Assembly (NCBI RefSeq): GCF_002260525.1
Contig: NZ_MRYI01000003.1
Coordinates: forward strand, 62,001 to 126,000
Origin: Hahella sp. CCB-MM4
GTDB taxonomy: Bacteria; Pseudomonadota; Gammaproteobacteria; Pseudomonadales; Oleiphilaceae
Reading direction: 5' to 3'
Length of the DNA: 64,000 bases
The notes beneath the pieces were generated by a model. It was not told the DNA's origin and made no database searches. It saw nothing but the letters and a program-made list of their open reading frames with translations. Below are positions 1,456-60,139 of the stretch, piece by piece (position 1 is the first letter of the stretch; the number at the start of each line of letters is the position of its first letter). The translations under genes were made by a program, and so were the position numbers.

Positions 1456-1851
1456 CCTGAAGAATTCTATTTAAGTTTTGGTCAGACAGAATCATTATAG
1501 ATCAACATCATGGATGATAAATGTCGTGACCTCGGTCAGGTACAGTATGCAGAGACATTTAACCATGTTTAATACTTGATTTAATACGTGGACTGAATCA
1601 TCAGGTTTAAGACTTAGCTGTGCTCAACACCATACAGTGTTCAACTATTGCTCCCCAGAATACTTAATACAGCGTGATGTTTTTTACACAAGGATGTTTT
1701 TTACACAGGAATGTCTTTTGCACAAGAAAGTGCTTTTTAAAAAACCAATGGTTATTGGCAGCGGTTTGTTATGAAGATTCGGTATCACCGGCATGCTGTA
1801 ACATTGCTATGCTAATACGTGGGTCCATAACAATGACAAGGAGGACTCAGC
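1456..1851. other. Gene-poor gap upstream of the DUF1631-like gene
   Basis: This stretch of about 400 bases holds the promoter side of the minus-strand DUF1631-like gene and of the small plus-strand gene at 1852. It contains the three-unit 17-bp repeat at 1677-1727 and a small inverted repeat CCAAT-GGTT-ATTGG at 1745-1758. The TAATAC at 1813-1818 could be a -10 element for the small gene but has no good -35 partner. Reading frames here are short and overlap the repeat, so I do not call a protein. Confidence 0.5.
1677..1727. repeat. 17-bp degenerate tandem repeat, 3 units
   Basis: Three consecutive 17-bp units at 1677-1693, 1694-1710 and 1711-1727 share the pattern ATGTTTTTTACACAAGG. The second differs at few positions and the third at several. 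The unit has no dyad symmetry and there are no spacers. It lies in non-coding DNA and belongs to the class of short tandem duplications seen throughout the window. Confidence 0.8.
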
Positions 1852-2022
1852 ATGTACGACTTGACCAGAGAACGCCGCAAATTTGACCGCCGCCTGTCAC
1901 CTGTGACCCGGCCAGCACCGTCAGAAAAACCCGAAGCAGTGGTAAACCGGCGACGTACAGATCGGCGTACGGATACGCGGCCTTTATCATCCTTTCCGCA
2001 TCTTCCATTTTGCGATATGTAA
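1852..2022 (+). CDS. Small Arg-rich protein with paired RRxxDRR motifs (56 aa)
   Basis: ATG at 1852 is preceded by an excellent ribosome binding site (AAGGAGGA, eight bases upstream). The frame runs 56 codons to TAA at 2020-2022. The product begins MYDLTRERRKFDRRLS and contains a second copy of the motif, NRRRTDRRTDTR, at residues 32-43, so two RR-x-x-DRR elements flank a Pro/Glu/Lys linker. The C-terminus (FPHLPFCDM) is hydrophobic and carries one Cys. There is no signal peptide or membrane segment. An 11-bp perfect hairpin starts 17 bases after the stop and could end the transcript. I do not recognise the family. The motif recalls the Arg-rich lead-in of PilZ domains, but no PilZ barrel is present. 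The gene is too short for routine ORF cut-offs. The strong Shine-Dalgarno and the internal motif repeat are the case for it being real. Confidence 0.6.
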   Translation: MYDLTRERRKFDRRLSPVTRPAPSEKPEAVVNRRRTDRRTDTRPLSSFPHLPFCDM

Positions 2023-2360
2023 TTACCGCCGGCTACTCATCAGGCATATTCGTGATCCCGGATATGCCTGATTTAGCCACCCAAAAACGAAGCCATACTA
2101 TTTTTTTGTTGAATCAGCAGTTTCTTTGCTGAACCAGCAGTGAGTATTATTGACATATTATTTAAACATACCGCAATGCTCTGTTTTGGAACAATATTTC
2201 CTTTACCGGAACAATCTCCACCCCGGGATCACAATGTAAATGTCATTGTGTGACATCTCTCCTTGATCTTGATTGCATTTACCCCTTGAATAGCGCAGTA
2301 TAACGGCCCAATCGAGCCAGATTGCACCATCCAGAACGCTATAAAAAACACGGAATCATT
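2023..2360. other. Promoter region of the DAHP synthase gene
   Basis: This 338-base gap contains the hairpin at 2039-2072 and two loose 20-bp direct duplications, GAATCAGCAG/GAACCAGCAG near 2110-2142 and GGAACAATATT/GGAACAATCTC near 2190-2220. There is also a compact dyad, ATGTCA-TTGTG-TGACAT, at 2240-2256. TATAAC at 2299-2304 is a plausible -10 element for aroF, with an imperfect -35 region about 17-20 bases upstream. A TyrR-type half site (TGTAAA, 2235-2240) is present, but its second arm is poor. Confidence 0.45.
2039..2072 (+). terminator. 11-bp perfect hairpin after the small gene
   Basis: ATCAGGCATAT at 2039-2049 pairs perfectly with ATATGCCTGAT at 2062-2072 around a 12-base loop. It is followed only by TTTAG, so it lacks a full U-run. 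It could be a weak terminator for the 1852-2022 gene or a protein-binding palindrome. Confidence 0.45.
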
Positions 2361-3431
2361 ATGTCAGTACACCAGATCGATAACGTTAATGTCGCCAGTC
2401 AGGACATTCTCATTACCCCTGATCGCCTTAAAGAAGATATCCCTCTGTCTGAAGCAGCAGAACAAACCGTCTACAAGGGGCGGCAGACTATCCGTGACAT
2501 TCTTGACCGGAAAGACCATCGCCTGTTTGTGGTTATAGGCCCTTGCTCAATTCATGACATAGAAGCAGCGAAAGACTATGCCAAGCGACTGAAAGCGCTG
2601 GCGGATGAACTGGACGATACCCTATACCTGGTGATGCGGGTATATTTTGAAAAGCCCCGCACCACCATTGGCTGGAAAGGCCTCATTAACGACCCCAACA
2701 TTGACGACACTTTTGATCTTGAGAAAGGATTGCATGTTGGTCGTCAGCTGCTGGTTGACCTCGCTGAAATGGGACTGCCAACGGCTACTGAAGCACTGGA
2801 CCCTATCTCCCCTCAGTACCTCCAGGACACAATTGCCTGGTCAGCTATCGGGGCACGCACCACAGAATCCCAGACTCACCGTGAGATGAGCAGTGGACTG
2901 TCCATGCCGATCGGTTTCAAAAACGGTACTGACGGCAGCCTGACAGTCGCCGTGAATGCCATGAAGTCAGTGTCTTACCCTCACTCGTTCCTGGGAATTA
3001 ACCCACAGGGACAGGTGTCCATCATTCGTACCAAAGGAAATGCTTACGGGCATGTTGTATTGCGTGGCGGAGATGGTAAGCCGAACTACGATACCGTCAG
3101 TGTGGCTCACTGCGAACAGGACCTCAAGAAGGCCGGCCTTCGCGAAGCCATTATGGTGGACTGCAGTCACGCAAACTCCAGTAAGGACCCCGCTAACCAG
3201 CCGCTGGTCATGATGGACGTGGCACACCAGATAGTTGAAGGTAACAACTCCATCGTTGGCCTGATGGTTGAGAGCAATATTCATTGGGGCAATCAACCGA
3301 TCCCGGAAGATCTTTCTCAACTGAAGTATGGCGTATCCATTACAGACGCCTGTATCGATTGGGAGACAACTGAAAAGAGTCTTCGGGAAATGTACGCTAA
3401 GCTGAAGGATGCATTGCCCAAGCGCAAATAA
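2361..3431 (+). CDS. aroF: 3-deoxy-7-phosphoheptulonate synthase (class I DAHP synthase)
   Basis: Condenses phosphoenolpyruvate and erythrose-4-phosphate to DAHP, the first step of the shikimate pathway, in the cytosol. The ATG at 2361 gives 356 residues, the length of E. coli AroF, and its N-terminus aligns with AroF (NVxxxxQDILITP). An upstream in-frame TTG at 2322 would add 13 unlike residues. Visible signatures are GPCSIHD at 60-66 with the metal-binding Cys62, KPRTTIGWKG at 98-107, and GARTTESQTHRE at 164-175, all characteristic of the feedback-regulated AroF/G/H type. Which aromatic amino acid inhibits it cannot be read safely. It is monocistronic, with a strong bidirectional terminator 30 bases after the stop shared with convergent cysG. 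aroC at 32.3 kb acts later in the same pathway. Confidence 0.93.
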   Translation: MSVHQIDNVNVASQDILITPDRLKEDIPLSEAAEQTVYKGRQTIRDILDRKDHRLFVVIGPCSIHDIEAAKDYAKRLKALADELDDTLYLVMRVYFEKPRTTIGWKGLINDPNIDDTFDLEKGLHVGRQLLVDLAEMGLPTATEALDPISPQYLQDTIAWSAIGARTTESQTHREMSSGLSMPIGFKNGTDGSLTVAVNAMKSVSYPHSFLGINPQGQVSIIRTKGNAYGHVVLRGGDGKPNYDTVSVAHCEQDLKKAGLREAIMVDCSHANSSKDPANQPLVMMDVAHQIVEGNNSIVGLMVESNIHWGNQPIPEDLSQLKYGVSITDACIDWETTEKSLREMYAKLKDALPKRK

Positions 3432-3460
3432 TCCCTCATAAACGCAAACAGTCTCCAATA

Positions 3461-3490
3461 AAAAAGACGGGCTATACCCGTCTTTTTTTG
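3461..3490. terminator. Bidirectional Rho-independent terminator, aroF/cysG
   Basis: AAAAAGACGGG (3461-3471), a five-base loop and CCCGTCTTTTT (3477-3487) form a perfect stem, with a T-run on the plus strand and an A-run that serves as a T-run on the minus strand. It sits between convergent aroF and cysG and can end both transcripts. Confidence 0.92.
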
Positions 3491-3506
3491 TCCTTCTGAC
3501 TGTAAA

Positions 3507-4922
3507 TCAGGCCATCCAGTCCAGCTTTTCCCTGAGTTTGACCACTTCGCCAATGATGATGATTGTCGGCCCGTGAACCTGTGACTGTCCGACCTTTTCA
3601 GCGATATCAGCAAGCGTCCCCGTCAACACCTCCTGATCAGGCAGTGTTCCCCTGGAAACAAGGGCCACCGGCATATCAGGGCGCATACCATGCGCCATAA
3701 GCTGCTGCGCAATAACCGGTAAGCCAAGGAGGCCCATATAAAACACCAGAGTCTGGTGCTCGTGGACGAATTCCGCCCAAGGCAAATCACAAGTATTGTT
3801 CTTGAGATGCCCGGTAACGAAGCGAACTGACTGGGAGCAATCCCTGTGAGTAAGAGGTATACCCGAATAGGATGCGCAGCCTGCGGCAGCTGTAATCCCT
3901 GGAACAACCTGAAACGGAATACCCGCATCTGCCAACCGATCGATTTCCTCTCCACCTCGACCAAAGATAAAGGGATCACCGCCTTTCAGCCGGAGGACTC
4001 TGTTGCCCTCTTTGGCAAGATCGACCAACAACTGATTAATCTCACCTTGCGGCAGAGTATGGTTGGAACGCGCCTTGCCCACATCAATGCGTTTTGCGTC
4101 GCGGCGAACCAGATCCAGAATTTGCGGAGAAACCAAACGGTCATAAAGAACCACATCCGCCTGCCGCATCAGCCGCAGCGCGCGGAAGGTCAGCAGGTCC
4201 GGATCACCCGGCCCGGCACCCACCAGATATACTTCGCCTTTGGAATCAAAATCAGCATCCTCCAGGGATTCCTGGAAAAGCTCTTCTGCTTTATCCATTC
4301 TTCCGGCATACACCAAATCGGCAATTGTTCCTTCGAGGGTTTGCTCCCAGAACTTACGACGCTGATTGATATGCTTGAATTTGTCCCGGACAATTTCCCG
4401 ATATTTTCCTGCAAGTTCAGCCAGGCGTCCGACACCATGCGGAATCGTCGACTCCAACCGGTTACGAAGCAATCGGGTCAATACCGGTGCGTCCCCACTG
4501 CTGCTGACAGCAACAAGCACCGGATGACGGTTGATGATGGAGGGGAAAATGAAGCTGCTTAAGGCAGGGTTTTCCACCACATTTACAGGGATATGCCGCT
4601 GCTGGCAGGACTTGGCAATATCCGCATTCAAAGCCGCCTTTTCAGATGCAGCCACCACCAATGCCACGCCCTGCAACATTGATTCATCATACGATTTGCC
4701 GACCAGGGTGACTGCTTCATTCTCTGCCAGCTCTCTATCCACCAGCTCGCGGCCCGCAACCGATTCCTCACCAGCCACCAGCTGAATCCGGGCTCCTGCC
4801 CGTAGCAGTAATTCAATCTTCCTGGCCGCTTGCTCCCCTTCTCCCACCACCAGGCAGGGCTTGTTCCTCAGATCAAGGACAACAGGAAGGAAGTCCCATT
4901 GCCCGGAAGATTGTTTTTCCAT
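3507..4922 (-). CDS. cysG: Siroheme synthase (uroporphyrinogen-III methyltransferase / precorrin-2 dehydrogenase / ferrochelatase)
   Basis: Makes siroheme for sulfite and nitrite reductase. The N-terminal half (about residues 1-210) is the dehydrogenase/chelatase domain. The C-terminal half (from about 225) is the SAM-dependent methyltransferase, with [16 protein letters not shown] and [16 protein letters not shown] intact. The start at ATG 4922 gives 471 aa, close to the usual 457-465. It lies 13 bases after serS, and a longer frame from 4961 would overlap serS. Two odd points are visible. The usual nucleotide-binding GGG is GEG at residues 27-29. The catalytic Asp (Asp104 in E. coli, in NVVD) is Glu117 in NVVENP. 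Ser141 (E. coli Ser128) is kept. Last gene of the ftsK-lolA-rarA-crcB-serS-cysG run. Confidence 0.93.
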
Positions 4923-4935
4923 CAATATGAGCCCT

Positions 4936-6234
<1,299 letters not shown>

Positions 6235-6291
6235 TTATATAAACAGAGTGTGAAAATTCCTTGCAAACGCCTGGAACGGTCGTCTACAGCA

Positions 6292-6681: not shown

Positions 6682-6788
6682 AGTGATTTAATGTCCTGTT
6701 CTCTTTTGAACCTGTTTTCTAATAAGCCTACTTCAAGGAAGTAAAAAAATGTTCTACCTGCTTCCTCGCCTGCTGCTCATTTGTCACT

Positions 6789-8132: not shown

Positions 8133-8136
8133 GGCA

Positions 8137-8763: not shown

Positions 8764-8766
8764 AAA

Positions 8767-14985: not shown

Positions 14986-15708
14986 TTAGTTGGCGGGTTT
15001 ATATCTGACGACCAACGAAGATACCTGATACCGCTTATCCATTTTGTCTTTTAGCCGATCGGCCTGCTCGCGTTTCAGGGTTGGCCCTGCAAAGACCCTT
15101 ATCAGATTGTCGGCACCTGATTGGATTTCCTGGGTGAAAGCCGGAACTTTTTCTTTATTCAGCTCGTCGCGTATTTTGAGGGCGCTGTCGCGATTCTTGA
15201 ATGTACCTATCTGCACTGCCCAGGCTACCGGCTCTCCATTTTCATCAAGAGACAGGTCTTTTACCTGGCTATCAAGCTCTGCAATCTCTTTTGAAGCCGA
15301 CGATTCAGGCTTTAGTACCGGCTCTTTATTTTGGACAACTTCCTTTTCTTCCGGCTTTGGCAATTCAACCTTCTGCGGCGCGACACTCTGGGCTGCGACC
15401 TCCTGCTTTTGCTCTTTGGGCTCTTTAGCCTCTAGAACCGAACCACCGGCGCTATTTTCAGTAACATCGACTATTTCATTTACATCGACTGCTTCTGTTA
15501 CATCGACTGTCGAGGGAGTCTCAGAACGCCTTAATGTGGGAGGCTTCGGGTCCTCAATCGTGAACTTGGGAACCTCGGGCTCCGGCGGGATGCTGATGAC
15601 ATGAGAGGTACGAGCCTGATGAGATTGCTCAAATACCATGGGAATAAAAATGATTGCCAGCGACACCAGGACGACCGCCCCGACTATTCTCTGCTTCAAT
15701 CCATCCAT
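14986..15708 (-). CDS. dedD: DedD-like SPOR-domain cell division protein
   Basis: A bitopic inner-membrane protein of 240 aa. It has a short cytoplasmic start (MDGLKQR), one membrane helix at about 8-26, and a Glu/Pro/Val-rich periplasmic linker. The C-terminal SPOR domain (about 165-240, AWAVQIGTFKNRDSALKIRDEL) binds denuded septal peptidoglycan. Its place between folC and cvpA is the conserved accD-folC-dedD-cvpA-purF order. The linker contains a threefold VDV-x-E repeat encoded by an 18-bp tandem duplication (15464-15510), so its length may vary between strains. Confidence 0.9.
   Translation of the reverse strand: MDGLKQRIVGAVVLVSLAIIFIPMVFEQSHQARTSHVISIPPEPEVPKFTIEDPKPPTLRRSETPSTVDVTEAVDVNEIVDVTENSAGGSVLEAKEPKEQKQEVAAQSVAPQKVELPKPEEKEVVQNKEPVLKPESSASKEIAELDSQVKDLSLDENGEPVAWAVQIGTFKNRDSALKIRDELNKEKVPAFTQEIQSGADNLIRVFAGPTLKREQADRLKDKMDKRYQVSSLVVRYKPAN
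15464..15514. repeat. 18-bp in-frame tandem repeat within dedD
   Basis: Units ACATCGACTATTTCATTT (15464-15481), ACATCGACTGCTTCTGTT (15482-15499) and a partial third unit from 15500 encode the VDV repeats of the DedD linker. The period is a multiple of three, so the reading frame is kept. Confidence 0.75.
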
Positions 15709-20863: not shown

Positions 20864-20911
20864 CACCGCCCTAGTCTTCCAGAAAGCACACCGCTCTAGT
20901 CTTCCAAAAAG
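20864..20911. repeat. 25-bp tandem duplication of the truA 3' end
   Basis: Two 23-base near-identical copies with a 25-bp period, CACCGCYCTAGTCTTCCARA plus AAG, lie at 20864-20886 and 20889-20911. The upper copy contains the last codons and TAG stop of truA (minus strand, ending LED-stop). The lower copy repeats those codons and the stop beyond the gene. Confidence 0.85.
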
Positions 20912-21812: not shown

Positions 21813-24800
21813 TTAATCAAGTCCTTTCAGCAATTCAGCAGCTTCCTGCTTCTGGACATCATTACCCTCGTCCGCAACCTCTTCCAGGATATCACGGGCA
21901 CCTTCCCTATCTCCCATGTCGATATATGCCCGGGCCAAGTCCAACTTGGTTGCTGATTCATCTGTATCGGACAGGAAATCAAAATCTTCTTCCATTTCTG
22001 TTACGAACTCGTCCTGTGGTTTTGCAATTGCACCTTCTCCTGTTGACCCAGTGTCCACTGCTGGCTGAATCATCGTATCCTCACCGGCACCAAGATCGGG
22101 AATATCCAAATCCAGGCCTTCCGGCTCTTCCTCAAGCATGTCCATTTCCTGAACAAATTCTTCTGCGATATCTTCTGAGAGATCTTCTGCTTTTTCTTCC
22201 TGCAGATCTTCAGACACATCACCTAAATCCAGATCAAGATCGGTATCTTCGTCCAGAGTATCCAATGAGAACTCTTCTACCCCTTCATCCTGCAGTGCTT
22301 TCTCTTCTTCATCACTTAGACCCTGTACTCCCTGTTCGTCCAGAGAGAAATCCAGGTCACCGTCATCCAAGTCCAGACTCAGCTCTTCTTCAGGCTCTAT
22401 CACAAGCTCTTCGACAGGCTCCACCGGAGACTCTTCATCCGAATCCAGATCTATCATTTCTTCACTGAAATCAAGATCCAGATCGTCGCTCTCAGCATCT
22501 CCCAGATCCGTAGAACCAAAGGCAATCGTTTCTTCCGGCTCTTCGGTCAAATCCAGATTAAACTCATCGTCTGTCGCTACCGGCGGCTGATTGACCGTAT
22601 CTTCCAGATCATCAATAACCCCCTCATCGAGATCGAAGTCCAATCCGGCCATCTCACTCTCTTCGTCAGCTGCTTCAGCCGTTCCGCCTGTCGTAGTATC
22701 GTCAAGATCTATGTCGCTGAGATCAAATTCAATATCCAGATCATCTTCACTTTCAACTGAACCTTCCTGCGCCAGATCGATATTCTCTTCCTGAACGAAA
22801 TCCGCCTGGGCTTCGCTCTGGATAACCGTATCTTCGACATCATCCAGGTTATCTACATCCAGCTCGAAGTCTTCACTTAAATCTGAAACCTCGAGCTCCT
22901 CTTCAGTTGCAAAATCCTCCCCTCCACCCATCAACTGACTTTCAAGATCATCCAGAGAAACCTCTGGCTCATCAGTCAAATCGGGGAATCGAGATCTGAT
23001 TTCAGCAGCTCGCTCAAGTACATCGGCATCACCACTGGACTCAAGCGCTGCATAAGTAGCGGCGAACTTACCACCATCTTTAGCCTCGCCCTGCACTTCC
23101 AACAGCTTCAGACGATATTCCTGATTCTCAGGCTCGTCATGCAACGCAGACTCCAACACCTGCTCAGCCTGACCGTATTTCTGGTAGGCAATATAGACGT
23201 CTGCCTCAGCAATCGGATCAGAAGCACCAATCTCGCCAGCCTCTGCCTCGGCTGCCGCAGGGCCCTGCACATCCTCATCTTCAAAGGTAATAACAGTGTC
23301 GTTGTCGTCTTCGCCATAGTGCTCCTCTTTGTTGGCACTACGCCGTGACAACAACCAGAGAATCAAAAGAACGATGACGCCGCCCGCAGCAATCGCAATC
23401 TGATAGACCACGTTGTTCATGATCATATCGATGAACGATTCTTCTTCCGCTACCGGAGGAATTGGCTTGGGCTTGGTGACCGGCTTCTCTTCGACCACCG
23501 GAGTTGGTACTGGCTGCTCAGCTGTTTCAGACTCGCCAATATCATTGGCAGTCCCTTCAGTCATGGCCGGCTGAGTCATTTCCGTTTCGCCAGTCATTGA
23601 CTCATCAGAGGACTTTCCCTCAGTGGGCACAGGTTCCTCTGACATAGGCTGCATTTCTGCCGTCTCGCCAGGCGTCATTTCACTAACGGTCGTTTCCGGC
23701 ACTGCGGTCTCAGCTTCCTCAACAGAAGCTTCGCCCTGCAATGCAGCAAGTTGGTCATCCTTCAGCTCAATCAATCGCTGCAGAGTCTCCAGCTGCCCCT
23801 GGAGATCTTCCAATCGGCTCTTAAGCTCTACATTTTCACGACTTGTCTGATCCAATTGCTCTTTAGCAAGAGTCAGATCCGCAAGACTGCCGTCTCCAGA
23901 GTCTGCACCTCCGGAAACTTTTGCATCACCCGTCGCTTTCTCGGCGCCATCACCAACAATCACGCGCAACTCGTCACGCGATGCCTGAGTGCTAGGTGTG
24001 GAGACCTCAGTCTCTGCCGCGGCATCCACAGTTCTTGGCTTGCTTCCCTCAGCAAATTCACGATTTTGTACACTAACGGCAGATATCGCCTCCCTTGATG
24101 TGCGGGAATCAATTTCCTCACGTGTCGGAAGGCGCAATACCTGACCAGACTTCAGCCGGTTAATGTTGCTATCAAAAAATGCGTTAGGGTTTAAATCCTG
24201 AATAGCCAGCATCATTTTCTGTGGTGAAACATCAGAACCCGGGCGGGTCTGCAGGGCAATTGACCACAGCGTGTCATCACCGCCTGTCGGGCCATAAGTG
24301 CTACTGCTGGTCGAAACAGTTGCCGTGGAAGGAGAAGGCGCTGTTTTCGGTGCAGTTGTCTGGCTCGGCGTTGCCTGTGAAGTGCTCTGGGATACCTGTG
24401 AAGTGCTCTGAGATACCTGAGTTTGCGGCGTCTGAACAGGAGCAACAGGTTCTGAACTATAGGTTGGCGGATCAATCAGTACCGCGTATTCCCTCAGCAA
24501 ACGCCCTGTTGGCCAGTTGACCTCGACAAGGAAGTTGAGGAAAGGCTCACGCACCGCCTTGGAGCTTGAGACCCTGATAATTGTTGATCCGTCCGGTTTC
24601 TTGTCGACTTTGAAGCGCAAGTCGGAGAGGAAATAAATTCTGTCCACCCCGGCTTTGAGAAACTCCTCTCTAGACGCAAGATTGGTAAGTATCTCGTTCT
24701 GCTCCAGATCCCGGACATTCACCAACTGTATTTCTGCGCTCAACGGCTGATTAAGATAACTGTTAACAGTCACTTCACCCAGCCCGAGCGCTTTTGCCAC

Positions 24801-27779: not shown

Positions 27780-27880
27780 GTTCATCCTCATTGACTCGCC
27801 AACCTAAAGTCTACGACTCTCCCGGTTGGCGACTAAATCTAATTAAGCCCATCTTTCAGGCTTTTCTCTATGTTCCAATA

Positions 27881-27959
27881 CAGCCAGACTCTAGTACAGC
27901 AATGCTCTATTACAGCCATGCTCTAGTACAGCCATGCTCCAGTGCAGTCACGTTTCGTG
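27881..27959. repeat. 16-bp degenerate tandem repeat, about 5 units, between leuD and leuB
   Basis: Units start at 27881, 27897, 27913 and 27929 with a decayed fifth at 27945. The consensus is CAGCCATGCTCTAGTA. The period is exactly 16 for the first four. They are contiguous, with no spacers, so this is not a CRISPR array. It lies inside the leucine operon, between the leuD stop and leuB start. Confidence 0.88.
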
Positions 27960-33393: not shown

Positions 33394-33413
33394 AGACTTA
33401 TATCACTTTTTAG

Positions 33414-33479
33414 AAGTAGTTTCTTAACAGGTTAAAAGTAGTTTCTTAACAGGTCAAAAGTAGTTTTTTAACAGGGCGG
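33414..33479. repeat. 22-bp tandem repeat, 3 units, upstream of aroC
   Basis: Units at 33414-33435, 33436-33457 and 33458-33479 share AAGTAGTTTCTTAACAGGT plus three variable bases. The first two are nearly identical. The array is directly in front of aroC on the minus strand. Confidence 0.9.
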
Positions 33480-33519: not shown

Positions 33520-33592
33520 TTAAATTGTACCTACAACCTTAAATTGTCCCTGCAGCTTAATTTGTATCAACAGCTTAAATTGTACCAGCAGC
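33520..33592. repeat. 18-bp repeat array duplicating the prmB stop region
   Basis: Units at 33575-33592, 33557-33574 and 33539-33556, and a 19-base unit at 33520-33538, share TTAAATTGTACCWGCAGC. On the minus strand the first unit is the last five codons plus TAA of prmB (GCT GCT GGT ACA ATT TAA). The next two units repeat the same six-codon pattern, each ending in TAA. Confidence 0.9.
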
Positions 33593-34621: not shown

Positions 34622-35752
34622 CTACAGACTAAAAGGAGCATCCTTCCCGTTTTCAAAATCGTCCAGAGTCTTTGTCGCAATTTCACGACCAATCTGAATG
34701 AGTTCAGGTGCCTTGTGATAATCAAAACTCAGGCATACGTGTTTGGGGATATTGATTAAAACGTCTGGTGGATAGCCTGCCAGCTTATATTGAGTCAAAG
34801 AGCTTTGCATGGCTTCAAATGCCATATTCATCGCGTCAAATTTTCCCAACGACAGTACACGCTCTTTACGAGCGCTCCCTTTATTGCCTCCTTTATTGCC
34901 GCTCCCATCCGGTTCATCCTGCTCATTGTTTGAGGGCTGGATAGCATTTTTTGCCTCAGGATCGTTCTCGGTAGAATCCTTTAGATCCAGATCCAGCACT
35001 TCTGAAATTTTTTCTTTCGCATCCCGATCAAACAACTGGGCGGCTTTTTGCCATACCTGCCCCATCCAATCTTCAAAACTCCGATCACTGGCAACTTCCA
35101 TCGTGTCGTAGTATCGATCTTCCATTTTTCCATCAAAAAAGCTGAGGTTGACCGCGACAATCAGATCCGCATGGGAAGCAATCGTGGGAATAATTGGCAA
35201 AGGATTAAGCAATCCGCCATCAACAAGCACCCGCCCCTTTACTACCTCTGGCGTGAGAAGACTGGGAATCGCCACAGACGCTCGAATCGCCTGTCTTAGG
35301 AGCCCTTCCTGAAACCAGATTTCCTTGTGATGCAACAAATCGGTGGCCACAGCAGTGTAATCTATCGGCAAGTCCTCAATGCGAGTATCGCCGATAAGAT
35401 CCCTCACCACAGAAAAGACCTTTTCCCCTCGAATAGCCCCAGGAGAACTAAATGACACGTCCAACAGCCTCAGAATATCGAAACGGTCCAGACCCGTCGC
35501 CCAATCCTTGAATTCACTGAGTTTACCCGCGGCATATATACCTCCCACCAGGGCTCCCATCGAGCAACCTGATAAAGCGACAATATCGTATCCGCGCTCT
35601 TCCAGAACCTCGATAACCCCCACATGGGCATACCCTCTGGCACCACCACTCCCCAAAACGAGAGCCACAGTTTTACCATTCTTCTTTGAGTGACTGGGAG
35701 AGCCCGAGTTTGGCTGCCCGGCCTGGTTTCCTGATTGCGATTTGTCACTCAT
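34622..35752 (-). CDS. Patatin-like phospholipase (RssA-like)
   Basis: Predicted cytoplasmic serine lipid hydrolase with the patatin Ser-Asp dyad. The oxyanion loop GSGGARG is at 34-40, the nucleophile Ser64 in GCSMGALVGG, and the Asp178 in VDGGLLNPLP. At 376 aa it is longer than the RssA core (about 300). The extra part is an acidic, Asn/Gly/Lys-rich insert near 265-300 containing a duplicated GGNK encoded by a 12-bp repeat. There is no signal peptide. It lies 21 bases downstream of the DUF4892 gene and 117 bases before prmB. The substrate is unknown. Confidence 0.9.
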   Translation of the reverse strand: MSDKSQSGNQAGQPNSGSPSHSKKNGKTVALVLGSGGARGYAHVGVIEVLEERGYDIVALSGCSMGALVGGIYAAGKLSEFKDWATGLDRFDILRLLDVSFSSPGAIRGEKVFSVVRDLIGDTRIEDLPIDYTAVATDLLHHKEIWFQEGLLRQAIRASVAIPSLLTPEVVKGRVLVDGGLLNPLPIIPTIASHADLIVAVNLSFFDGKMEDRYYDTMEVASDRSFEDWMGQVWQKAAQLFDRDAKEKISEVLDLDLKDSTENDPEAKNAIQPSNNEQDEPDGSGNKGGNKGSARKERVLSLGKFDAMNMAFEAMQSSLTQYKLAGYPPDVLINIPKHVCLSFDYHKAPELIQIGREIATKTLDDFENGKDAPFSL

Positions 35753-37642: not shown

Positions 37643-37693
37643 TTGTGTGCTTATTCAGATATTCCGCTTATTCAGGTATTTCATTTACTCAGG
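37643..37693. repeat. 17-bp degenerate repeat covering the tatD stop
   Basis: Units at 37677-37693, 37660-37676 and 37643-37659 share the minus-strand pattern CCTGAATAAGCGGAATA. The first contains the last two sense codons and TAA stop of the TatD gene (CCT GAG TAA). Confidence 0.8.
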
Positions 37694-38571: not shown

Positions 38572-38610
38572 TCCCGGCTTCCATTCTTCCCGGCTTTCAT
38601 CTTTCCCGGT
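38572..38610. repeat. 16-bp degenerate repeat between pilZ and tatD
   Basis: Units TCCCGGCTTCCATTCT (38572-38587) and TCCCGGCTTTCATCTT (38588-38603), with a partial third, TCCCGGTT, from 38604. Confidence 0.75.
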
Positions 38611-39274: not shown

Positions 39275-40183
39275 ATGCCCCATACTAAACCACTGTTTTT
39301 CCGATACCTTGGAAGCCTATTCGCCATCTTTTTATCTGTTGTGTCATGGCAAACCAGGGCAGAAACACCCACCTTCATCCTGACCTCAATCAAGCCTTTG
39401 GCTTTGATTCTCCAGGAGGCATACGGCGACTTGATAACTGTTGACTATCTGCTCCCTCCTCAGGCAAGTCCACATCATTACTCCTTAAAACCAAGTGATC
39501 TTCGAAAACTGAGTAAGGCAGATCTGTTCGTATGGGCCGGTCCAGGTCTCGAAAACTTTCTCCTGACCGTACTAAAAAACAATCCGGCGGACTTCCAGAT
39601 CGCACTGATTGAAGAGATGGAGAAGTCACATCCCGAATTGCTGATCCACTTAAATGCTTTGACTGAGCATACAGACTCGGATCATTCCCATGAAGATCAA
39701 CTTGTTGACCCCCACATCTGGCTCAACCGGGAAAATGCTGCCGCGATTGCACAATTGACCGGAATGCGGCTTGAGGAAGCAGGCGCAGATCCAGGTCGTA
39801 TCTCTATGGCATTCAACACCTTCGAACAGAAGCTGACAAACCTTACTGGCACACAGACCACAAATTTAAACGAACTCCAATTGATCACTTATCACAACGC
39901 ATATGCTTATTTAGCAAGGGACCTTAACCTCACAATCACCGACATAGTCACACCACAGACAGATGTAAACCCCGGCGCTAAACACTTGGTTCAACTCAAA
40001 CAAAAAGCGATCGATCACCCCACCTGCGTGATTGTAGAACCTCAATTCAGCAGCAAGTTGGTTGACAAGATATTTGATCAGGAAGGTACAAAAATCATCG
40101 AAATTGATCCAATGGCGGGACAGTCTGCCACCTACACAGACTTCTTCAGCGACACTCTCAGAAAGCTGGAAAACTGCAAATAG
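39275..40183 (+). CDS. znuA: Zinc ABC-transporter substrate-binding protein (ZnuA-like)
   Basis: Periplasmic metal-binding protein of the cluster A-I (TroA/ZnuA) type, 302 aa with a signal peptide ending near TRA-E (residue 29). Zinc ligands are His in PPQASPHHYSLKP near 66, DPHIWLN near 149, and the strand with TYHNAYAYLA near 207, plus a late Asp/Glu. The His/Asp loop (HTDSDHSHEDQ, near 132-142) is shorter than in E. coli ZnuA. The gene has its own Zur-like operator and terminator. No znuB/znuC is nearby, so it must work with a permease encoded elsewhere. Confidence 0.9.
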   Translation: MPHTKPLFFRYLGSLFAIFLSVVSWQTRAETPTFILTSIKPLALILQEAYGDLITVDYLLPPQASPHHYSLKPSDLRKLSKADLFVWAGPGLENFLLTVLKNNPADFQIALIEEMEKSHPELLIHLNALTEHTDSDHSHEDQLVDPHIWLNRENAAAIAQLTGMRLEEAGADPGRISMAFNTFEQKLTNLTGTQTTNLNELQLITYHNAYAYLARDLNLTITDIVTPQTDVNPGAKHLVQLKQKAIDHPTCVIVEPQFSSKLVDKIFDQEGTKIIEIDPMAGQSATYTDFFSDTLRKLENCK

Positions 40184-40195
40184 GAAAACTCAAAT

Positions 40196-40230
40196 AAAAA
40201 AGCAGTAGCCCGAAGACTACTGCTTTTTTT
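40196..40230. terminator. Bidirectional terminator znuA/manC
   Basis: AAAAAAGCAGTAG (40196-40208), an eight-base loop and CTACTGCTTTTTTT (40217-40230) form a perfect stem with T-runs on both strands between the two convergent genes. Confidence 0.93.
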
Positions 40231-41664: not shown

Positions 41665-41811
41665 GATCAATTTATCCTTGATATCGAATGGTCTATTAAG
41701 GTAACCCAGTTACCTGCTTTATGTTATGGGTTTCATATTTACTTAGCCGGGCGACTTTGACAAATTTAAATATAGTTATCGCCACAGCTCATTTCAGAAG
41801 TAGATAGTATT

Positions 41812-41845
41812 CAGGATAGCGAACTCTGCAGGATAGCGAAATTAC
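41812..41845. repeat. 17-bp direct repeat upstream of manC
   Basis: CAGGATAGCGAACTCTG (41812-41828) and CAGGATAGCGAAATTAC (41829-41845) are adjacent copies differing at the 3' part. They lie just beyond the wzz stop. Confidence 0.7.
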
Positions 41846-53972: not shown

Positions 53973-54016
53973 GTTCTGACCCATAGATTAAGACCAATGA
54001 CCAAGGAGCAGTGTTA

Positions 54017-54973: not shown

Positions 54974-54976
54974 GAA

Positions 54977-55036
54977 TTTTACGACCTAGCTATTTACAAC
55001 ATAGCTTTTTACAACACGGCAATTTACAACATAGTT
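54977..55036. repeat. 15-bp tandem repeat, 4 units, between tal and cysC
   Basis: Four contiguous units at 54977, 54992, 55007 and 55022 share ATTTACAACATAGCT. Units 2 and 4 are nearly identical. The array begins three bases after the tal stop. Confidence 0.9.
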
Positions 55037-55093
55037 AGCAGAGGTATGCGCCTACCCCGCTAAGCTTTTTCAATAGATGCAGGAAACCAATTG

Positions 55094-55729
55094 ATGACAG
55101 ATACCAATATTGTCTGGCACAACTACAAACTCAACAAGAATCACCGAGCTGCCATCAAAAACCAGAAGCCTTGTGCCATCTGGTTGACAGGCCTGAGTGG
55201 CGCCGGCAAATCCACTTTGGCAGAAGCTCTCGACCGAGTTCTCCACGGTAATGGGTATCACACCTACGGTTTGGACGGCGACAATGTGCGGCACGGATTA
55301 AACAAAGACCTGGGCTTTTCCGATAGGGATAGGGTAGAAAATATTCGTCGGGTGGGCGAAGCGGCCAAACTGATGGTCGATGCGGGATTGATCGTGGTCA
55401 CGGCGTTTATATCTCCATTTCGCAAGGACCGTGAAATGGTACGTTCGCTATTTGCCCCTACGGAATTTATCGAGGTCTACATCAGCACTCCTATTGAGGA
55501 TTGCGAAAAAAGAGATCCCAAAGGTCTATACAAAAAAGCGCGTGCCGGATTAATCAAGAACTTCACTGGTATCGATTCCCCCTATGAAGCTCCTGAAGAT
55601 CCGGAAATCGACGTGGATACCAGCAAATTGAGCATTGATGAAGCAGTAAAGGCTGTCATCGATTATCTGGAAAAGGGCGGTTTCCTTTGTGCTCCTGAAA
55701 ATGTAGAAGCACCTTCCGAAACATCCTAA
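55094..55729 (+). CDS. cysC: Adenylylsulfate (APS) kinase
   Basis: Phosphorylates APS to PAPS. Start ATG 55094 (AGGA nine bases upstream; an adjacent TTG is the other option) gives 211 aa. The P-loop GLSGAGKST lies near 35-43, with [19 protein letters not shown] near 62 and [10 protein letters not shown] near 104-113. It stands alone; cysD/cysN are not in the window. Pseudomonas often has a CysNC fusion. A stand-alone kinase may serve assimilation or sulfation of polymers. A strong convergent hairpin follows. Confidence 0.95.
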
Positions 55730-55741
55730 TCTTTGTCTATA

Positions 55742-55776
55742 GCGGCAGGTGGTTCATAGATCACACCACCTGTCGC
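55742..55776. terminator. Hairpin terminator between cysC and lolD
   Basis: GCGGCAGGTGG (55742-55752) pairs with CCACCTGTCGC (55766-55776) with one G-T wobble around a 13-base loop between the convergent genes. The T-tract is short (TTTC). Confidence 0.75.
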
Positions 55777-55818
55777 TTTCAATCAAACGGGCAAACGACA
55801 GAACATCAATTCGGATTC

Positions 55819-56523
55819 CTAACCTAAGGACTCCATTTCATGCTCCCGCACCAAGTGACCATCCTTCAGGCGATAGGTCTTACTCATTTTCGCAGCTAAC
55901 GCCGGGTCATGAGTTACCAACACAAATGCCGTCTGGTTATCTTTGACCAACTCCCACAGCAGCTGCTGAACCGAATCCGCCGAGTCTGGATCGAGATTTC
56001 CCGTAGGCTCATCCATCAATACGCAGGAGGGCCTGGGCGCGATAGCACGAGCAATCGCCACCCGTTGACGCTCACCACCAGAGAGCTGGCCAGGCTTATG
56101 GGCAAGTCGATGCCCCAACCCCACTCTCTCCAGCCATTCTGCCGCTTCCTTTTGAGCCTTTGATGGCGACTCACCTTTAATAAGCAAAGGCATGGCGACA
56201 TTTTCAAGAGCACTAAACTCCGGCAAGAGATGATGAAACTGATAAACAAAACCAACATGATGGTTCCGGAGCCTGGCCTTTGCCTTTTCTTTTAAGGCAG
56301 CCGCTTTTTTCCCCGCAATATATACATCACCACTGGATGGAGCATCCAAAGCCCCAAGAATATTCAGAAGTGTTGACTTACCGGATCCCGACGCCCCGAC
56401 AATAGCCAGCGTTTCCCCAGGGGTGACATCAAGATCGATCCCTCTCAGGATCTCGATAGTTTCTTTCCCCTGCACGTAGGATTTGTGCACAGCCTGGCAA
56501 CTCAATACGAGTTCATTATTCAT
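55819..56523 (-). CDS. lolD: Lipoprotein-releasing ABC transporter ATPase LolD
   Basis: ATPase that powers extraction of outer-membrane lipoproteins to LolA. Start ATG 56523 overlaps the permease stop as ATGAATAA, an 8-base overlap, and gives 234 aa like E. coli LolD (233). Walker A GASGSGKST near 43-51, signature LSGGERQRVAIARA near 145, and Walker B CVLMDEPTGNLD near 165 are all intact. It is the last gene of its unit. No lolE follows; the next gene is convergent cysC. Confidence 0.95.
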   Translation of the reverse strand: MNNELVLSCQAVHKSYVQGKETIEILRGIDLDVTPGETLAIVGASGSGKSTLLNILGALDAPSSGDVYIAGKKAAALKEKAKARLRNHHVGFVYQFHHLLPEFSALENVAMPLLIKGESPSKAQKEAAEWLERVGLGHRLAHKPGQLSGGERQRVAIARAIAPRPSCVLMDEPTGNLDPDSADSVQQLLWELVKDNQTAFVLVTHDPALAAKMSKTYRLKDGHLVREHEMESLG

Positions 56524-57757
56524 AGCGCAGAGCCTCCGCAGGTTCAATTTTGGACGCCCGGTAAGCGGGATAAATCGTAGCCAGGAAGCTTATCGCCAAA
56601 GTGCAGGCACTAATCACACCCACGTCGCTCCATTGCAGCTCTGATGGCAAATAGCTGATGAAGTAGACGTCTGAACTAAGGAATTGCGTGCCCAGCAGAT
56701 CCTCCAGCCCGGCAATAATAGAACTGATATTAGTTGCAAGCAGCACTCCAAATAGCACACCTAGCCCTGTTCCGATGACGCCGATCAGAGTTCCCTGAAC
56801 CATAAATACCCGTAAAATCGAACCCGGTGTTGCGCCCATCGTACGCAAAATAGCGATATCCGCCTTTTTATCGGTGACCACCATGACCAAAGTGGAAACT
56901 ATATTGAATGCAGCCACCGCGATAATCATCATCAGCAACAGGCCCACCATGGTTTTTTCCATCCTGATGGCCTGAAACAGATTACCGTGTGTTCGAGTCC
57001 AGTCACTTGCGTAATAACCACTCCCCAACTGGCTGGCAATTCCCCAAGCGATCTTCTGGGAAGCAAAGAGATTCTCCATACGCAACCGCAGCCCTTCAAT
57101 GGCATTCCCCAGACGTTTGAGCTTTGCTGCATCGTCTATGTGCACCATGGCCAGCGTCCCGTCGAGTTCAGCACCTACACTGAAGATCCCGACGACCGTC
57201 AACCTTTTCATACGGGGAAACACTCCGGCAGGGGTGACTGAAGCTTCCGGCAGAATGATCGTAATTTTATCCCCTATCCTTGCCCGCAATGACCGCGCCA
57301 GGAGGTCACCAATGACAATGCCGAAGTCACCCGATTTCAGATCCGTCAGACTTCCCTGCACCATATGATTTTGGACGATCGAAACATTTTGCTCTGCAAC
57401 AGGATCGATACCATTTATCAATATCCCATGCACATTCCCTTCCGCCGTCGCCATTCCCTGAGCCTGAATAAATGGAGCCACCCCCTCTACACCAGGAGTA
57501 TTCTCGATTTTTTTCTGCAGGTCCTGCCAGTCGGTCATCGGGGAGTAACTCTTGACCACCGCATGAGGAACCATCCCCAGAATTCTCTGACGAAGCTCCC
57601 GATCGAATCCATTCATGACAGACATCACGGTGATCAACACCAATACACCCAGTATCAGTCCAATCATCGAAGTAAGGGAGATAAACGAGATAAAATGGTT
57701 ATCCCGCTTTGCCGCGGTATAGCGCAAGCCAACAAACAGGCTTAAAGGTTTATACAT
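56516..57757 (-). CDS. lolC: Lipoprotein-releasing ABC permease, LolC/LolF type
   Basis: Inner-membrane permease of 413 aa with the MacB/LolCE plan: one helix near 25-50, a large periplasmic domain, and three helices from about 270 to the end. The segment SVTPAGVFPRMKRLTVVG near 185 corresponds to the LolC hook (TPMGRIPSQ in E. coli) that docks LolA. It is paired with lolD alone. In E. coli and Pseudomonas lolC-lolD is followed by lolE, which is absent here. It may therefore be a LolF-type permease working as a homodimer with LolD. Confidence 0.87.
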   Translation of the reverse strand: MYKPLSLFVGLRYTAAKRDNHFISFISLTSMIGLILGVLVLITVMSVMNGFDRELRQRILGMVPHAVVKSYSPMTDWQDLQKKIENTPGVEGVAPFIQAQGMATAEGNVHGILINGIDPVAEQNVSIVQNHMVQGSLTDLKSGDFGIVIGDLLARSLRARIGDKITIILPEASVTPAGVFPRMKRLTVVGIFSVGAELDGTLAMVHIDDAAKLKRLGNAIEGLRLRMENLFASQKIAWGIASQLGSGYYASDWTRTHGNLFQAIRMEKTMVGLLLMMIIAVAAFNIVSTLVMVVTDKKADIAILRTMGATPGSILRVFMVQGTLIGVIGTGLGVLFGVLLATNISSIIAGLEDLLGTQFLSSDVYFISYLPSELQWSDVGVISACTLAISFLATIYPAYRASKIEPAEALRYE

Positions 57758-57814
57758 TCAATACCAACTTTTCTATTTGAACAGGTATTCGTTTACAGAA
57801 ACCGGATGTGGAAG

Positions 57815-57848
57815 CACATTACCGGACACCACACATTACCAGATACCA
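57815..57848. repeat. 17-bp direct repeat in the lolC / PilZ-protein divergent region
   Basis: CACATTACCGGACACCA (57815-57831) and CACATTACCAGATACCA (57832-57848) are adjacent copies with two differences, placed between the divergent lolC-type gene and the PilZ-domain gene. Confidence 0.8.
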
Positions 57849-57966
57849 TGTAAGTCTTAAAAATGGCGTAAAACTATAATCGATTGAAATACTGAGGACT
57901 ACTACGGTTAGTTAATTTCGTCCTACACTAATAAAAGAATTGATTTTTAACCCCGAAGGATGGTTC

Positions 57967-58566
57967 ATGAGGCAACGAGGCAAACCCGATAATCGCAGAG
58001 ATTTCTTTCGAATCAAGGACAGAGGACTGATCGAATATGTCCTCTATGACAACATAGCGCCAGGGTTTGAGCAGTTTTTCCGCCATCCAGTCTATTTCGA
58101 GCTGATCAATGAACTGCAAGCCCTCGATGTAGAATTTCAGCATATGCTGAGCCACATTCCCGATAGTGAAAGGACTGCGGCTGCACTAATTAAAATCCTC
58201 AACAAGAAAATCGACCTGATCGCCAGAACCGTGACCATGGTGGAGACCAATATTTCGGACGACAGCATTCAAGAGATGGACATCAGTGAAGGCGGAATGG
58301 CATTTTGCACCTCTACTGAGCTGAAGGTGGGGCAAAAGATGGCGATCAAATTTACTGCGGTACCTGCTTATCTGTCTATTGCCTCGCTGGCGGAAGTCAT
58401 CTCCTGCGATTCCATTGCCTATGAAGATGAAGACAGCGGTCATTCGAGCAGATTTCAAGTCAGAGTCAACTTCGTTGACATGGACGAACACCAACGCCAA
58501 CTGATCGCCCGCTATATCCTGAAAATCCAACAACAGGCGCGACGCAGGGAATTAGCCAAAAACTGA
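57967..58566 (+). CDS. PilZ-domain protein with separated c-di-GMP motifs
   Basis: 199 aa from ATG 57967 (AAGGA six bases upstream). The N-terminus has the c-di-GMP RxxxR motif (RRDFFRI, Arg11-Arg15). The partner motif DISEGG is at 105-110, followed by the PilZ barrel. In a usual PilZ domain these are about 30 residues apart. Here about 90 residues of predicted helix (FEQFFRHPVYFELINELQAL and onward) separate them. Similar proteins occur next to lolC in Pseudomonas. It is probably a c-di-GMP receptor, target unknown. There is no membrane segment or signal peptide. Confidence 0.82.
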   Translation: MRQRGKPDNRRDFFRIKDRGLIEYVLYDNIAPGFEQFFRHPVYFELINELQALDVEFQHMLSHIPDSERTAAALIKILNKKIDLIARTVTMVETNISDDSIQEMDISEGGMAFCTSTELKVGQKMAIKFTAVPAYLSIASLAEVISCDSIAYEDEDSGHSSRFQVRVNFVDMDEHQRQLIARYILKIQQQARRRELAKN

Positions 58567-58700
58567 TACCAAATGTTAGGCAAACATGCGACAGTTCAAA
58601 AGTTTAAGGCTACACTCTAATAAAGTTATTAAGATATCCATTATAGTATGCATATTAGGATCTCTTATTTGGTAACAAACTGTTTTGATAGGAAATATCG

Positions 58701-59003
58701 ATGCAACGTCAACTAAAATCCAATCTGGGACGGGTACTTGCATGCAGCATTCTGCTGGCAGCTTCTTTAACTTCACATGCTGAGGAGCTCAAAACTCCTG
58801 TTATGAACCAGGGAGACCGGCAAACTGTCAACTTGCCCAGAAGTGGCCAGGATATGAGTTCCGTTGAGTCCCAGTTCGGGCAACCCATCTCCACCAAAGG
58901 TCCTGTGGGCACTCCCCCTATTACAGTTTGGGATTACCCTGGCTACACCGTTTACTTTGAGGGACAAACCGTCATTCATGCGGTTCTTAAGCCCAAAAAC
59001 TAA
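58701..59003 (+). CDS. Small secreted protein of unknown function (100 aa)
   Basis: ATG 58701 has AGGA seven bases upstream. A signal peptide (about 1-26, SLTSHA cleavage) leads to a 74-residue mature domain. The region DMSSVESQFGQPISTKGPVG with ITVWDYPGYTVYFEGQTVIHAV has the pattern of small periplasmic domains such as SmpA/BamE, in which a helix MxxVxxxFGxP is followed by W-x-Y and a beta hairpin. There is no lipobox Cys. Similar unnamed proteins occur in Pseudomonas. It lies 47 bases before aguA. No function is assigned. Confidence 0.8.
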   Translation: MQRQLKSNLGRVLACSILLAASLTSHAEELKTPVMNQGDRQTVNLPRSGQDMSSVESQFGQPISTKGPVGTPPITVWDYPGYTVYFEGQTVIHAVLKPKN

Positions 59004-59049
59004 TTGACAACAATTTTAGAATTTCATCAACATCATTTCGGAAACCTGA

Positions 59050-60084
59050 GTGAGCAATATTGTCCTACCCGCCGAATGGGCTCCCCAATGCGCTGTTCTG
59101 TTAACCTGGCCGCATGAGCAAACCGACTGGGCTGAAAATTTACCCCAAGTCGAAACCACCTTTCTTGAAATTGCCAAGGCTGTATGCAAATACCAAAACC
59201 TGATCATCAGTTGTCAGTCTTTCGACAGGTTGGAAAAGATCGCAGACGCGCTGCATGCAGCTGGCATACCACCTGAAAAGGTAGGTCTCTATTGTGTCCC
59301 ATCTAATGATAGCTGGTGTCGAGACCATGGCCCAATCACCGTCTATGATGGTCACACCCCGGTACTGTTGGATTTCCGCTTCAACGCCTGGGGCGGCAAA
59401 TTCGACTATGAAAAAGATGACCAGATTACCACCAGCCTTCTTGAGCTCGGGGCGTTCGATGGAGCAGCTATCCGTCACATCCCCTATATTCTCGAGGGTG
59501 GCTCAATTGAATCAGATGGCCAGGGAACCGTTATGACCACTTCTGAGTGCGTCTTAACGGCAACAAGAAATCCAGATGCCACAAAGGAATCCGTCGAAGC
59601 CAGCTTTAAAGAATATTTTGGCGCCAGTCGGGTACTCTGGCTAGATCACGGCTATCTGGCCGGAGACGACACCGACAGCCACATTGATACTCTGGCCCGG
59701 TTCTGTGACGAAGAAACTATCTGCTATGTTCAGTGCAATGATCCTTCAGATGAACATTATGACGCTCTGAAGAAAATGGAAGGTCAGCTGCAAGCCGCTC
59801 GCAAAGCAGACGGCAGCCCTTACAAGCTGATTCCTCTACCGATGGCTGACGCCTGCTTTGACGATGAAGGACACAGACTTCCCGCCACTTACGCCAACTT
59901 TCTGATCATCAATGGCGCTGTGCTAGCACCTGTTTATGGCGTCCCACAAGACCAGGAAGCCATCAGCCAACTGAAGTTCTGCTTCCCTGACCGGACAATT
60001 GAGGCTATCGATTGCCGCAGCCTGATAGAACAACACGGAAGTCTGCATTGCGTTACCATGCAACTTCCAGACGGCGTTATCTGA
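59050..60084 (+). CDS. aguA: Agmatine deiminase
   Basis: Converts agmatine to N-carbamoylputrescine in the arginine decarboxylase route to putrescine. At 344 aa starting at GTG 59050 (GGAAA upstream), it is a little shorter than typical AguA (about 365). Family marks are MPAEW-like LPAEWAPQCAVLLTWP at the start, WCRDHGPITV near 94, EGGSIESDGQGT near 152, HGYLAGDDTDSHIDTLARF near 201-219, and the catalytic Cys334 in GSLHCVTMQ. aguB is not adjacent. It is followed by a 17-bp repeat and a strong terminator. Confidence 0.92.
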   Translation: MSNIVLPAEWAPQCAVLLTWPHEQTDWAENLPQVETTFLEIAKAVCKYQNLIISCQSFDRLEKIADALHAAGIPPEKVGLYCVPSNDSWCRDHGPITVYDGHTPVLLDFRFNAWGGKFDYEKDDQITTSLLELGAFDGAAIRHIPYILEGGSIESDGQGTVMTTSECVLTATRNPDATKESVEASFKEYFGASRVLWLDHGYLAGDDTDSHIDTLARFCDEETICYVQCNDPSDEHYDALKKMEGQLQAARKADGSPYKLIPLPMADACFDDEGHRLPATYANFLIINGAVLAPVYGVPQDQEAISQLKFCFPDRTIEAIDCRSLIEQHGSLHCVTMQLPDGVI

Positions 60085-60095
60085 AGGCATCAACA

Positions 60096-60139
60096 CTTGT
60101 TTCGAGCTAGCGCTTGTTTCGAGCCAATACTTGTTCTGA
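60096..60139. repeat. 17-bp tandem repeat after aguA
   Basis: CTTGTTTCGAGCTAGCG (60096-60112), CTTGTTTCGAGCCAATA (60113-60129) and a partial CTTGTTCTGA (60130-60139) lie between the aguA stop and its terminator. Confidence 0.85.

What the first reader, a model, noticed from the sequence alone, without database searches (positions are those of the whole stretch)
1677..60139. Unrelated 15-25 bp tandem duplications recur in the gaps between genes
At least eleven non-coding loci carry short contiguous repeats: 1677 (17 bp x3), 20864 (25 x2), 27881 (16 x5), 33414 (22 x3), 33520 (18 x4), 37643 (17 x3), 38572 (16 x2.4), 41812 (17 x2), 54977 (15 x4), 57815 (17 x2) and 60096 (17 x2.6). The unit sequence differs at every site, so this is not one dispersed element. 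Three coding examples (fimV 21 bp, dedD 18 bp, patatin gene 12 bp) all have periods divisible by three, whereas non-coding periods do not. The pattern suggests an ongoing, sequence-independent duplication process with selection against frame-breaking copies, and perhaps a function for spacing at gene ends.
Basis: partly seen in the sequence, partly recalled or inferred. Interest (0 to 1): 0.72.

Follow-up and report, generated by a model that had tools for sequence, protein, structure and literature searches.

The report
Genome-wide short tandem duplications at gene ends
One marine bacterium carries many unrelated, mostly 14-24 base head-to-tail duplications, concentrated just after genes end and far denser than in its sampled close relatives, which points to an unusual lineage-specific mutation process rather than a mobile element.

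Summary
The window lies in a 6.66-Mb Hahella genome. In the window, 10 non-coding arrays reach TRF score 50; dinucleotide shuffles give 0.035 on average. In 1.415 Mb of the same genome there are 121, against 1.0 per shuffle. The next species, G002, has 7 in 475 kb (6.4-fold lower density in non-coding DNA); five other Hahella have 5 in 674 kb (11.5-fold lower). Periods cluster at 14-24 bp. Units are unrelated between sites and not dispersed. Arrays are 2.4 to 4 times denser within 100 bp after stop codons than in other non-coding zones; 34 overlap a stop codon. Best reading: a lineage-elevated mutational process makes short tandem duplications, later slippage extends them, and selection prunes them in coding and 5' regions. 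The enzyme is unknown: Ku is absent from all seven Hahella genomes, and six repair genes tested are present, unbroken, in all seven. Archaeal Borg repeats are the closest known parallel found.

The parts
1676..1726 (.). non-coding array, 17 bp x3.0
20864..20911 (-). 25 bp x1.9; the last 16 bp of the truA-like gene (stop codon included) recur downstream
27879..27947 (.). 16 bp x4.3 between the Aconitase_C-domain gene (leuD-like) and leuB-like gene; anchored gap 209 bp here, 72 bp in G002
33410..33475 (.). 22 bp x3.0, 16 bp upstream of the called start of the chorismate synthase gene; anchored gap (with the next array) 233 bp here, 109 bp in G002
33520..33586 (-). 18 bp x3.7; gene tail with its stop codon recurs three times downstream of the methyltransferase-domain gene
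37649..37693 (.). 17 bp x2.6, weak, not listed by TRF at score 30
38572..38609 (.). 16 bp x2.4
41812..41840 (.). 12-bp exact match at lag 17, weak
54977..55034 (+). 15 bp x3.8 (TRF also reads it as 30 bp x1.9), starting 3 bp after the stop of the transaldolase gene
57815..57848 (.). 17 bp x2.0 between two divergent genes
60091..60135 (+). 17 bp x2.6, starting 6 bp after the stop of the PAD_porph-domain gene
40168..40196 (+). 15 bp x2.0 across the stop codon of the ZnuA-domain gene
15457..15509 (-). coding array, 18 bp x2.9, SPOR-domain gene
22159..22211 (-). coding array, 24 bp x2.2, FimV-domain gene; G002 aligns across this site with a similar stretch
24363..24419 (-). coding array, 21 bp x2.7, FimV-domain gene
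34878..34900 (-). coding repeat, 12 bp x1.9, patatin-domain gene (score 46, below the cut of 50 used in the tallies)

Best explanation
A sequence-independent mutational process, raised in this Hahella lineage, makes short head-to-tail duplications over the whole genome, mostly of 14-24 bp. Once two copies exist, ordinary slippage or unequal exchange can take an array to 3-8 copies, and point mutations then erode it. Selection removes frame-breaking copies from genes and most copies from the DNA just before start codons. That leaves them mainly in the first hundred bases after stop codons, where a copy spanning the stop leaves the protein unchanged. Shown here: the excess over shuffle and over congeners, the size range, the lack of shared sequence, the coding frame constraint, the 3' preference, and at two sites that the in-gene copy is the one homologous to G002. 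Inferred: that each first event is a local re-synthesis with little junction homology (for example fill-in between offset nicks on the two strands), that later growth is by slippage, and that the rate rather than the tolerance differs between species.
For: 121 non-coding arrays in 1.415 Mb against 1.0 per shuffle. Density 6.4 times that of G002 (p = 4e-10) and 11.5 times that of five other Hahella (p = 6e-15). Unit sequences no more alike to off-site DNA than shuffled units up to the 95th percentile (top bit score 32.2 against 30.2), and 0 of 121 best off-site hits in another array. Coding periods divisible by three in 34 of 41; non-coding 45 of 121. Arrays with such periods are also more frequent in genes than in G002 (2.9 against 0.78 per 100 kb, p = 0.02), as expected of a process not confined to gaps. 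Identities from 64% to 100%, and about 18 perfect non-coding doublets of 15-22 bp with none in five shuffles. Of nine isolated perfect non-coding doublets, junction homology is 0-2 bp in six. Gene tails with stop codons recur downstream, and the in-gene copy is homologous to G002 in both cases examined.
Against: Three of those nine doublets have 6-12 bp of junction homology, which fits slippage instead; the set is small. Tandem duplications of 9-12 bp are also in excess, so the lower size limit is partly one of detection. No cause was found: Ku is absent from 7 of 7 genomes, and PolA, MutS, ExoI, RecJ, XseA and RNase HI are present, unbroken, in 7 of 7. DNA more than 100 bp from any stop or start is not denser than 5' DNA, which selection alone does not obviously predict. 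No strain pairs or reads were available, so no event was seen happening. One period-23 array lies inside a called 418-residue gene.
Confidence: 0.6

Rival explanations
1. Plain replication slippage between short direct repeats, only more frequent here, makes both the first duplication and the later growth.
For: Arrays of up to 8 copies. Three of nine isolated perfect doublets have 6-12 bp of junction homology. Excess of 9-12 bp duplications too. Slippage is a described cause of repeat-number change in bacteria (discussion passages of PMC9879509).
Against: Six of the nine have 0-2 bp, as for a blunt duplication. MutS and three single-strand exonucleases, whose loss is recalled to favour such events, are present.
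Confidence: 0.22
2. The arrays are kept for a function after genes, such as spacing between stop codon and terminator or RNA stability.
For: 12.5 arrays per 10 kb within 100 bp after stops only, against 3.2 before starts only and 3.0 in neither zone; the ratio is 2.4-4.0 under all masks tried. Where a terminator-like hairpin is found with an array it lies after the array in 12 cases, before in 5, inside in 2.
Against: Absent from G002 at the eight anchored window sites. Carried by only 111 of 763 gaps of 50 bp or more. No common sequence; folding z-score mean -0.57, 12 of 121 below -2. No in-frame preference at stops (12 of 34). Arrays with periods divisible by three are also raised in genes.
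Confidence: 0.1
3. Footprints of a mobile element: target-site duplications left after precise excision.
For: Unrelated units, little junction homology in six of nine doublets, limited size range.
Against: Lengths vary over 14-24 bp, unlike the fixed length recalled for most transposases. No element was seen between copies in the loci printed. No reverse transcriptase excess: one RVT_1 match here, 1-9 in the other six. Elements between widely spaced copies were not searched for, and Cas1 was not searched.
Confidence: 0.05
4. Assembly artefact or chance.
For: The assembly is in 161 contigs, so it probably rests on short reads (inference).
Against: Copies are imperfect in most arrays (median 85% identity). 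Arrays occur in every 100-kb stretch of both large contigs, 1-13 each. Shuffles give about 1 against 121. G002, also in about 140 contigs, has a much lower density.
Confidence: 0.01

Closest known systems
Tandem repeats of archaeal Borg elements (PMC9879509; abstract, section 2.1 part 1 of 2, section 2.1.3 and search passages read)
   Same: Unrelated repeats scattered over the genome, units around 18-36 nt in the examples read, formed after divergence of close relatives, in genes with amino-acid repeats and in gaps, often starting within a gene end; intergenic periods mostly not divisible by three (23% are).
   Different: Borg repeats are described as perfect, counted from three units and 50 nt up, strongly A-rich and on extrachromosomal elements. 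Here copies are mostly imperfect and often two, arrays are AT-richer than matched DNA but not A-biased (A 0.296, T 0.300 on the sense strand), and they lie on a bacterial chromosome.
Bacterial minisatellites / VNTR loci
   Same: Tandem units of tens of bases, in gaps and genes.
   Different: Density: this genome has 6 to 11 times that of its congeners. In E. coli alignments minisatellites (20 bp or more, 90% identity) outside palindromic units made up 18 of 1,037 variable loci (PMC2884548, passages read); the criteria differ, so only the order of size is comparable.
Small tandem duplications at staggered breaks in animal cells (PMC8355091, passages read)
   Same: Fill-in of both overhangs followed by joining gives tandem duplications mostly without microhomology.
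   Different: That route needs Ku80 and CST/Pol alpha-primase; no Ku match in any of seven Hahella genomes. Only the logic is borrowed.

Membership tests
Borg-type tandem repeats | Pervasive, unrelated units absent from close relatives | tested here: met
   arrays missing at eight anchored G002 sites
Borg-type tandem repeats | Perfect copies without substitutions | tested here: not met
   median identity 85%, range 64-100%
Borg-type tandem repeats | A-rich units | tested here: not met
   A 0.296, T 0.300 on the sense strand of 83 oriented arrays; background 0.266 and 0.264
Borg-type tandem repeats | Periods in genes divisible by three | tested here: met
   34 of 41; six of the seven others lie at gene ends, over no called gene or in a low-scoring call
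Bacterial minisatellite / VNTR | Tandem units beyond chance | tested here: met
Bacterial minisatellite / VNTR | Copy number varies between strains | not testable with these tools
   one genome per species held; no reads
Dispersed repeat or mobile repeat family | Same unit at many sites | tested here: not met
   0 of 121 best off-site hits in another array; match scores like shuffled units
Ku-dependent end-joining duplications | Ku present | tested here: not met
   0 of 7 genomes; the control rang in Bacillus subtilis
Ku-dependent end-joining duplications | Junctions without microhomology | tested here: inconclusive
   6 of 9 isolated doublets 0-2 bp, 3 of 9 with 6-12 bp

The most novel reading that the evidence does not exclude
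Duplication is coupled to the end of translation: the DNA between stop codon and terminator, where RNA polymerase runs without ribosomes, is locally copied again in steps of about 14-24 bp by an unidentified Ku-independent activity raised in this lineage. That would be a gene-end-targeted duplication process in a bacterial chromosome, parallel to Borg repeats.
Probability: 0.17. Interest if true: 0.78.

Novelty: new variant of a known kind. Interest (0 to 1): 0.52.

Why it matters
Short insertions in bacteria are usually put down to slippage at existing repeats (general knowledge). A genome with roughly 570 independent short tandem arrays (extrapolated), several still perfect and with little junction homology, beside congeners with a sixth to a tenth of the density, is a natural mutator contrast for finding what makes and limits such duplications. 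It also gives a bacterial comparison for Borg repeats and shows how sequence after genes, and repeat stretches within them, can grow.

Tried and rejected
Dispersed element: rejected, units not shared. End joining with Ku: no Ku in 7 of 7. Argonaute small DNAs: no Piwi match in 7 of 7. Lineage-specific reverse transcriptase: one RVT_1 match here, 1-9 in the other six. Loss of repair genes: PolA, MutS, ExoI, RecJ, XseA and RNase HI matched above their cut-offs, without internal stops, in 7 of 7; SbcCD, RecG, TopA, MutL and Cas1 were not searched. Shared motif: weak enrichment of CTAG in the first sample (7 of 48 against 1.3) and of TATT, AGCT and ATTTA in 83 oriented arrays (lowest p 2e-5 among many k-mers); not taken as a signal. 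Tandem in-frame stop codons as a selected trait: 12 of 34, no excess. Terminator replacement: no difference. Sharp peak exactly at the stop codon: in the first, 633-kb sample 18 arrays lay within 20 bp of a stop against 7.5 expected; the larger sample shows instead a broad zone, flat over about 0-100 bp after the stop. Known RNA families in the window: none at the gathering score.

Papers: the listings showed no report of this in Hahella; one search found no paper, and five papers with both terms, of which I saw only listings. Subscription journals are largely outside the library.

Limits: genes were called with a home-made hexamer model, so start sites and short genes are uncertain; stops are safer. 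In one search groups under 55 kb (Marinomonas, Endozoicomonas, G006) were called with this genome's model. Tallies keep periods 10-60 and TRF score 50 or more. In one search arrays were kept if they fell in a gap between called genes (130 of 162, coding class included). In one search the other-genera groups used 65 of the 80 loci, and own-genome pieces under 4 kb were left out.
Full report
Where it is. The window is G000:C85:62001-126000 of a 6.66-Mb genome in 161 contigs. The genus search returned seven genomes, this one included, and the best named relative of its LeuB-like protein is Hahella ganghwensis at 92%. G002 also matches at 92%, on a contig of the same length as the named one (115,097 bases), so G002 is probably that species (inference). 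Aligned stretches of the window and G002 are 71-79% identical in DNA above 500 bp, and the alignment ends at window position 41714.

Is it real? Each of the eleven loci shows its repeat; copy numbers are slightly overstated in places, and two loci are weak (37643, 41812). One search adds 2101-2141. With TRF score 50 or more and period 10-60, the window has 10 non-coding arrays against a shuffle mean of 0.035 and a maximum of 1 in 200 shuffles. In 1.415 Mb of the genome there are 121 in 241 kb of non-coding DNA, against 1.0 per shuffle. Extrapolated, that is about 570 arrays in the genome. Each 100-kb stretch of the two large contigs holds 1-13.

Is it special to this genome? G002 has 7 arrays in 475 kb. 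The five other Hahella species have 1, 1, 1, 2 and 0 in 120-140 kb each, 5 in 674 kb together. Density ratios in non-coding DNA are 6.4 (p = 4e-10) and 11.5 (p = 6e-15). Other genera around the same locus show 0 to 3.5 per 10 kb of non-coding DNA; the highest figure rests on three arrays in one Halieaceae locus, and periods in these genera are 12-22 bp. Six further genomes of the family, 20 kb each, gave 3 arrays in 29.8 kb of non-coding DNA, two of them in G015; more of G015 could not be fetched. The process is therefore not unique to this genome, but strongly raised in it among the Hahella sampled.

Anatomy. Periods cluster at 14-24 bp; median 2.5 copies, median identity 85%, range 64-100%. 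Perfect non-coding doublets of 15-22 bp number 18, none in five shuffles; there are also 10 of 9-12 bp against 1.0, so the lower limit is partly one of detection. Units are not related to each other: off-site matches score like those of shuffled units up to the 95th percentile (top score 32.2 against 30.2 bits), and 0 of 121 best hits fall in another array. Of nine isolated perfect non-coding doublets of 13 bp or more, junction homology is 0, 0, 1, 2, 2, 2, 6, 7 and 12 bp (two of the nine have periods of 34 and 44 bp, and the one with 6 bp is an 8-bp unit repeated). Six are as expected for a blunt duplication and three would fit slippage. In two window cases the unit contains the end of the gene. 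The truA-like tail GPFFLED-stop corresponds to GPFFLQD-stop in G002, and the 33575 gene's tail FKAAAGTI-stop to FKEAAGLN-stop. So the in-gene copy is the older and the downstream copies are the additions.

Gap lengths. Distances between anchors, here against G002, are 336/408 (1676), 349/309 (2101), 166/150 (20864), 209/72 (27879), 233/109 (33410), 238/114 (33520, largely the same gap), 174/146 (37643) and 230/233 (38572). Six are longer here, one is equal and one is shorter, so arrays do not always lengthen the gap. The only non-coding array on G002's contig C129 lies outside the part aligned to the window.

Frame and position. Of 41 coding arrays, 34 have a period divisible by three (p = 9e-11). 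Of the other seven, five run over the end of a called gene (one of them a low-scoring call), one lies over no single called gene, and one with period 23 lies inside a called 418-residue gene (C85:379686). Coding arrays with periods divisible by three are more frequent here than in G002 (2.9 against 0.78 per 100 kb, p = 0.02), which fits a genome-wide process. Arrays are concentrated after genes: 12.5 per 10 kb within 100 bp after stops only, 7.4 where both a stop and a start are within 100 bp, 3.2 within 100 bp of starts only, 3.0 in neither. The ratio stays between 2.4 and 4.0 across the six combinations of open-reading-frame mask and length limit tried. Convergent gaps are densest (10.1 per 10 kb), then codirectional (5.7), then divergent (3.9). 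Base coverage by arrays is 5.6-6.9% over the first 100 bp after stops, against 0.8-2.8% over the first 60 bp before starts. Stop-overlapping arrays number 34, of which 12 have periods divisible by three.

Mechanism. I commit to a raised mutational process plus selection, at 0.6. The frame-keeping survivors in genes, the random frames outside, the arbitrary units and the range of ages all follow from it. What makes the duplication is not settled. Fill-in of offset nicks explains blunt junctions and limited size, but no Ku was found, so another joining route would be needed. Replication slippage explains growth to many copies and some junctions. Loss of the six repair genes tested is excluded. 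The 3' preference could be selection, since the stretch after a gene is the least constrained. But DNA far from both starts and stops is no denser than 5' DNA, which leaves room for a mutational bias toward gene ends; missed genes and regulatory sites in long gaps could also cause this, and masking reduces but does not remove the bias. A function is the weaker reading: arrays are missing at the anchored G002 sites, are carried by 111 of 763 gaps of 50 bp or more, do not replace terminators (17 of 70 against 71 of 410) and have no common sequence.

Comparison. The closest description found is the tandem repeats of Borg elements (PMC9879509; abstract, part of section 2.1 and passages read): scattered, unrelated, lineage-specific, in frame inside genes, often beginning within a gene end. 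Features described there that fail here are perfect copies and A-richness. The arrays belong to the broad class of bacterial minisatellites, but at a density that the sampled congeners lack.

Noticed in passing
G001 and G006 genomes: Several reverse-transcriptase (RVT_1) copies with equal scores (six in G001, five in G006), as for an active intron-like family, against one RVT_1 match in the window's genome.
   Followed up: no
L244:1224 and L244:14987 (G015:C1:100001-120000): Two non-coding arrays (16 bp x2.0 perfect, 19 bp x2.9) in only 6 kb of non-coding DNA of another genus of the family; it may share the high density, but more sequence could not be fetched.
   Followed up: partly
L056:3103, 12461, 12637: Three non-coding arrays (12-15 bp) in one 21-kb Halieaceae locus, another candidate for a high-density genome.
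   Followed up: no
C85:193074 of the own genome: A perfect 44-bp tandem doublet in non-coding DNA, larger than the usual class.
   Followed up: no
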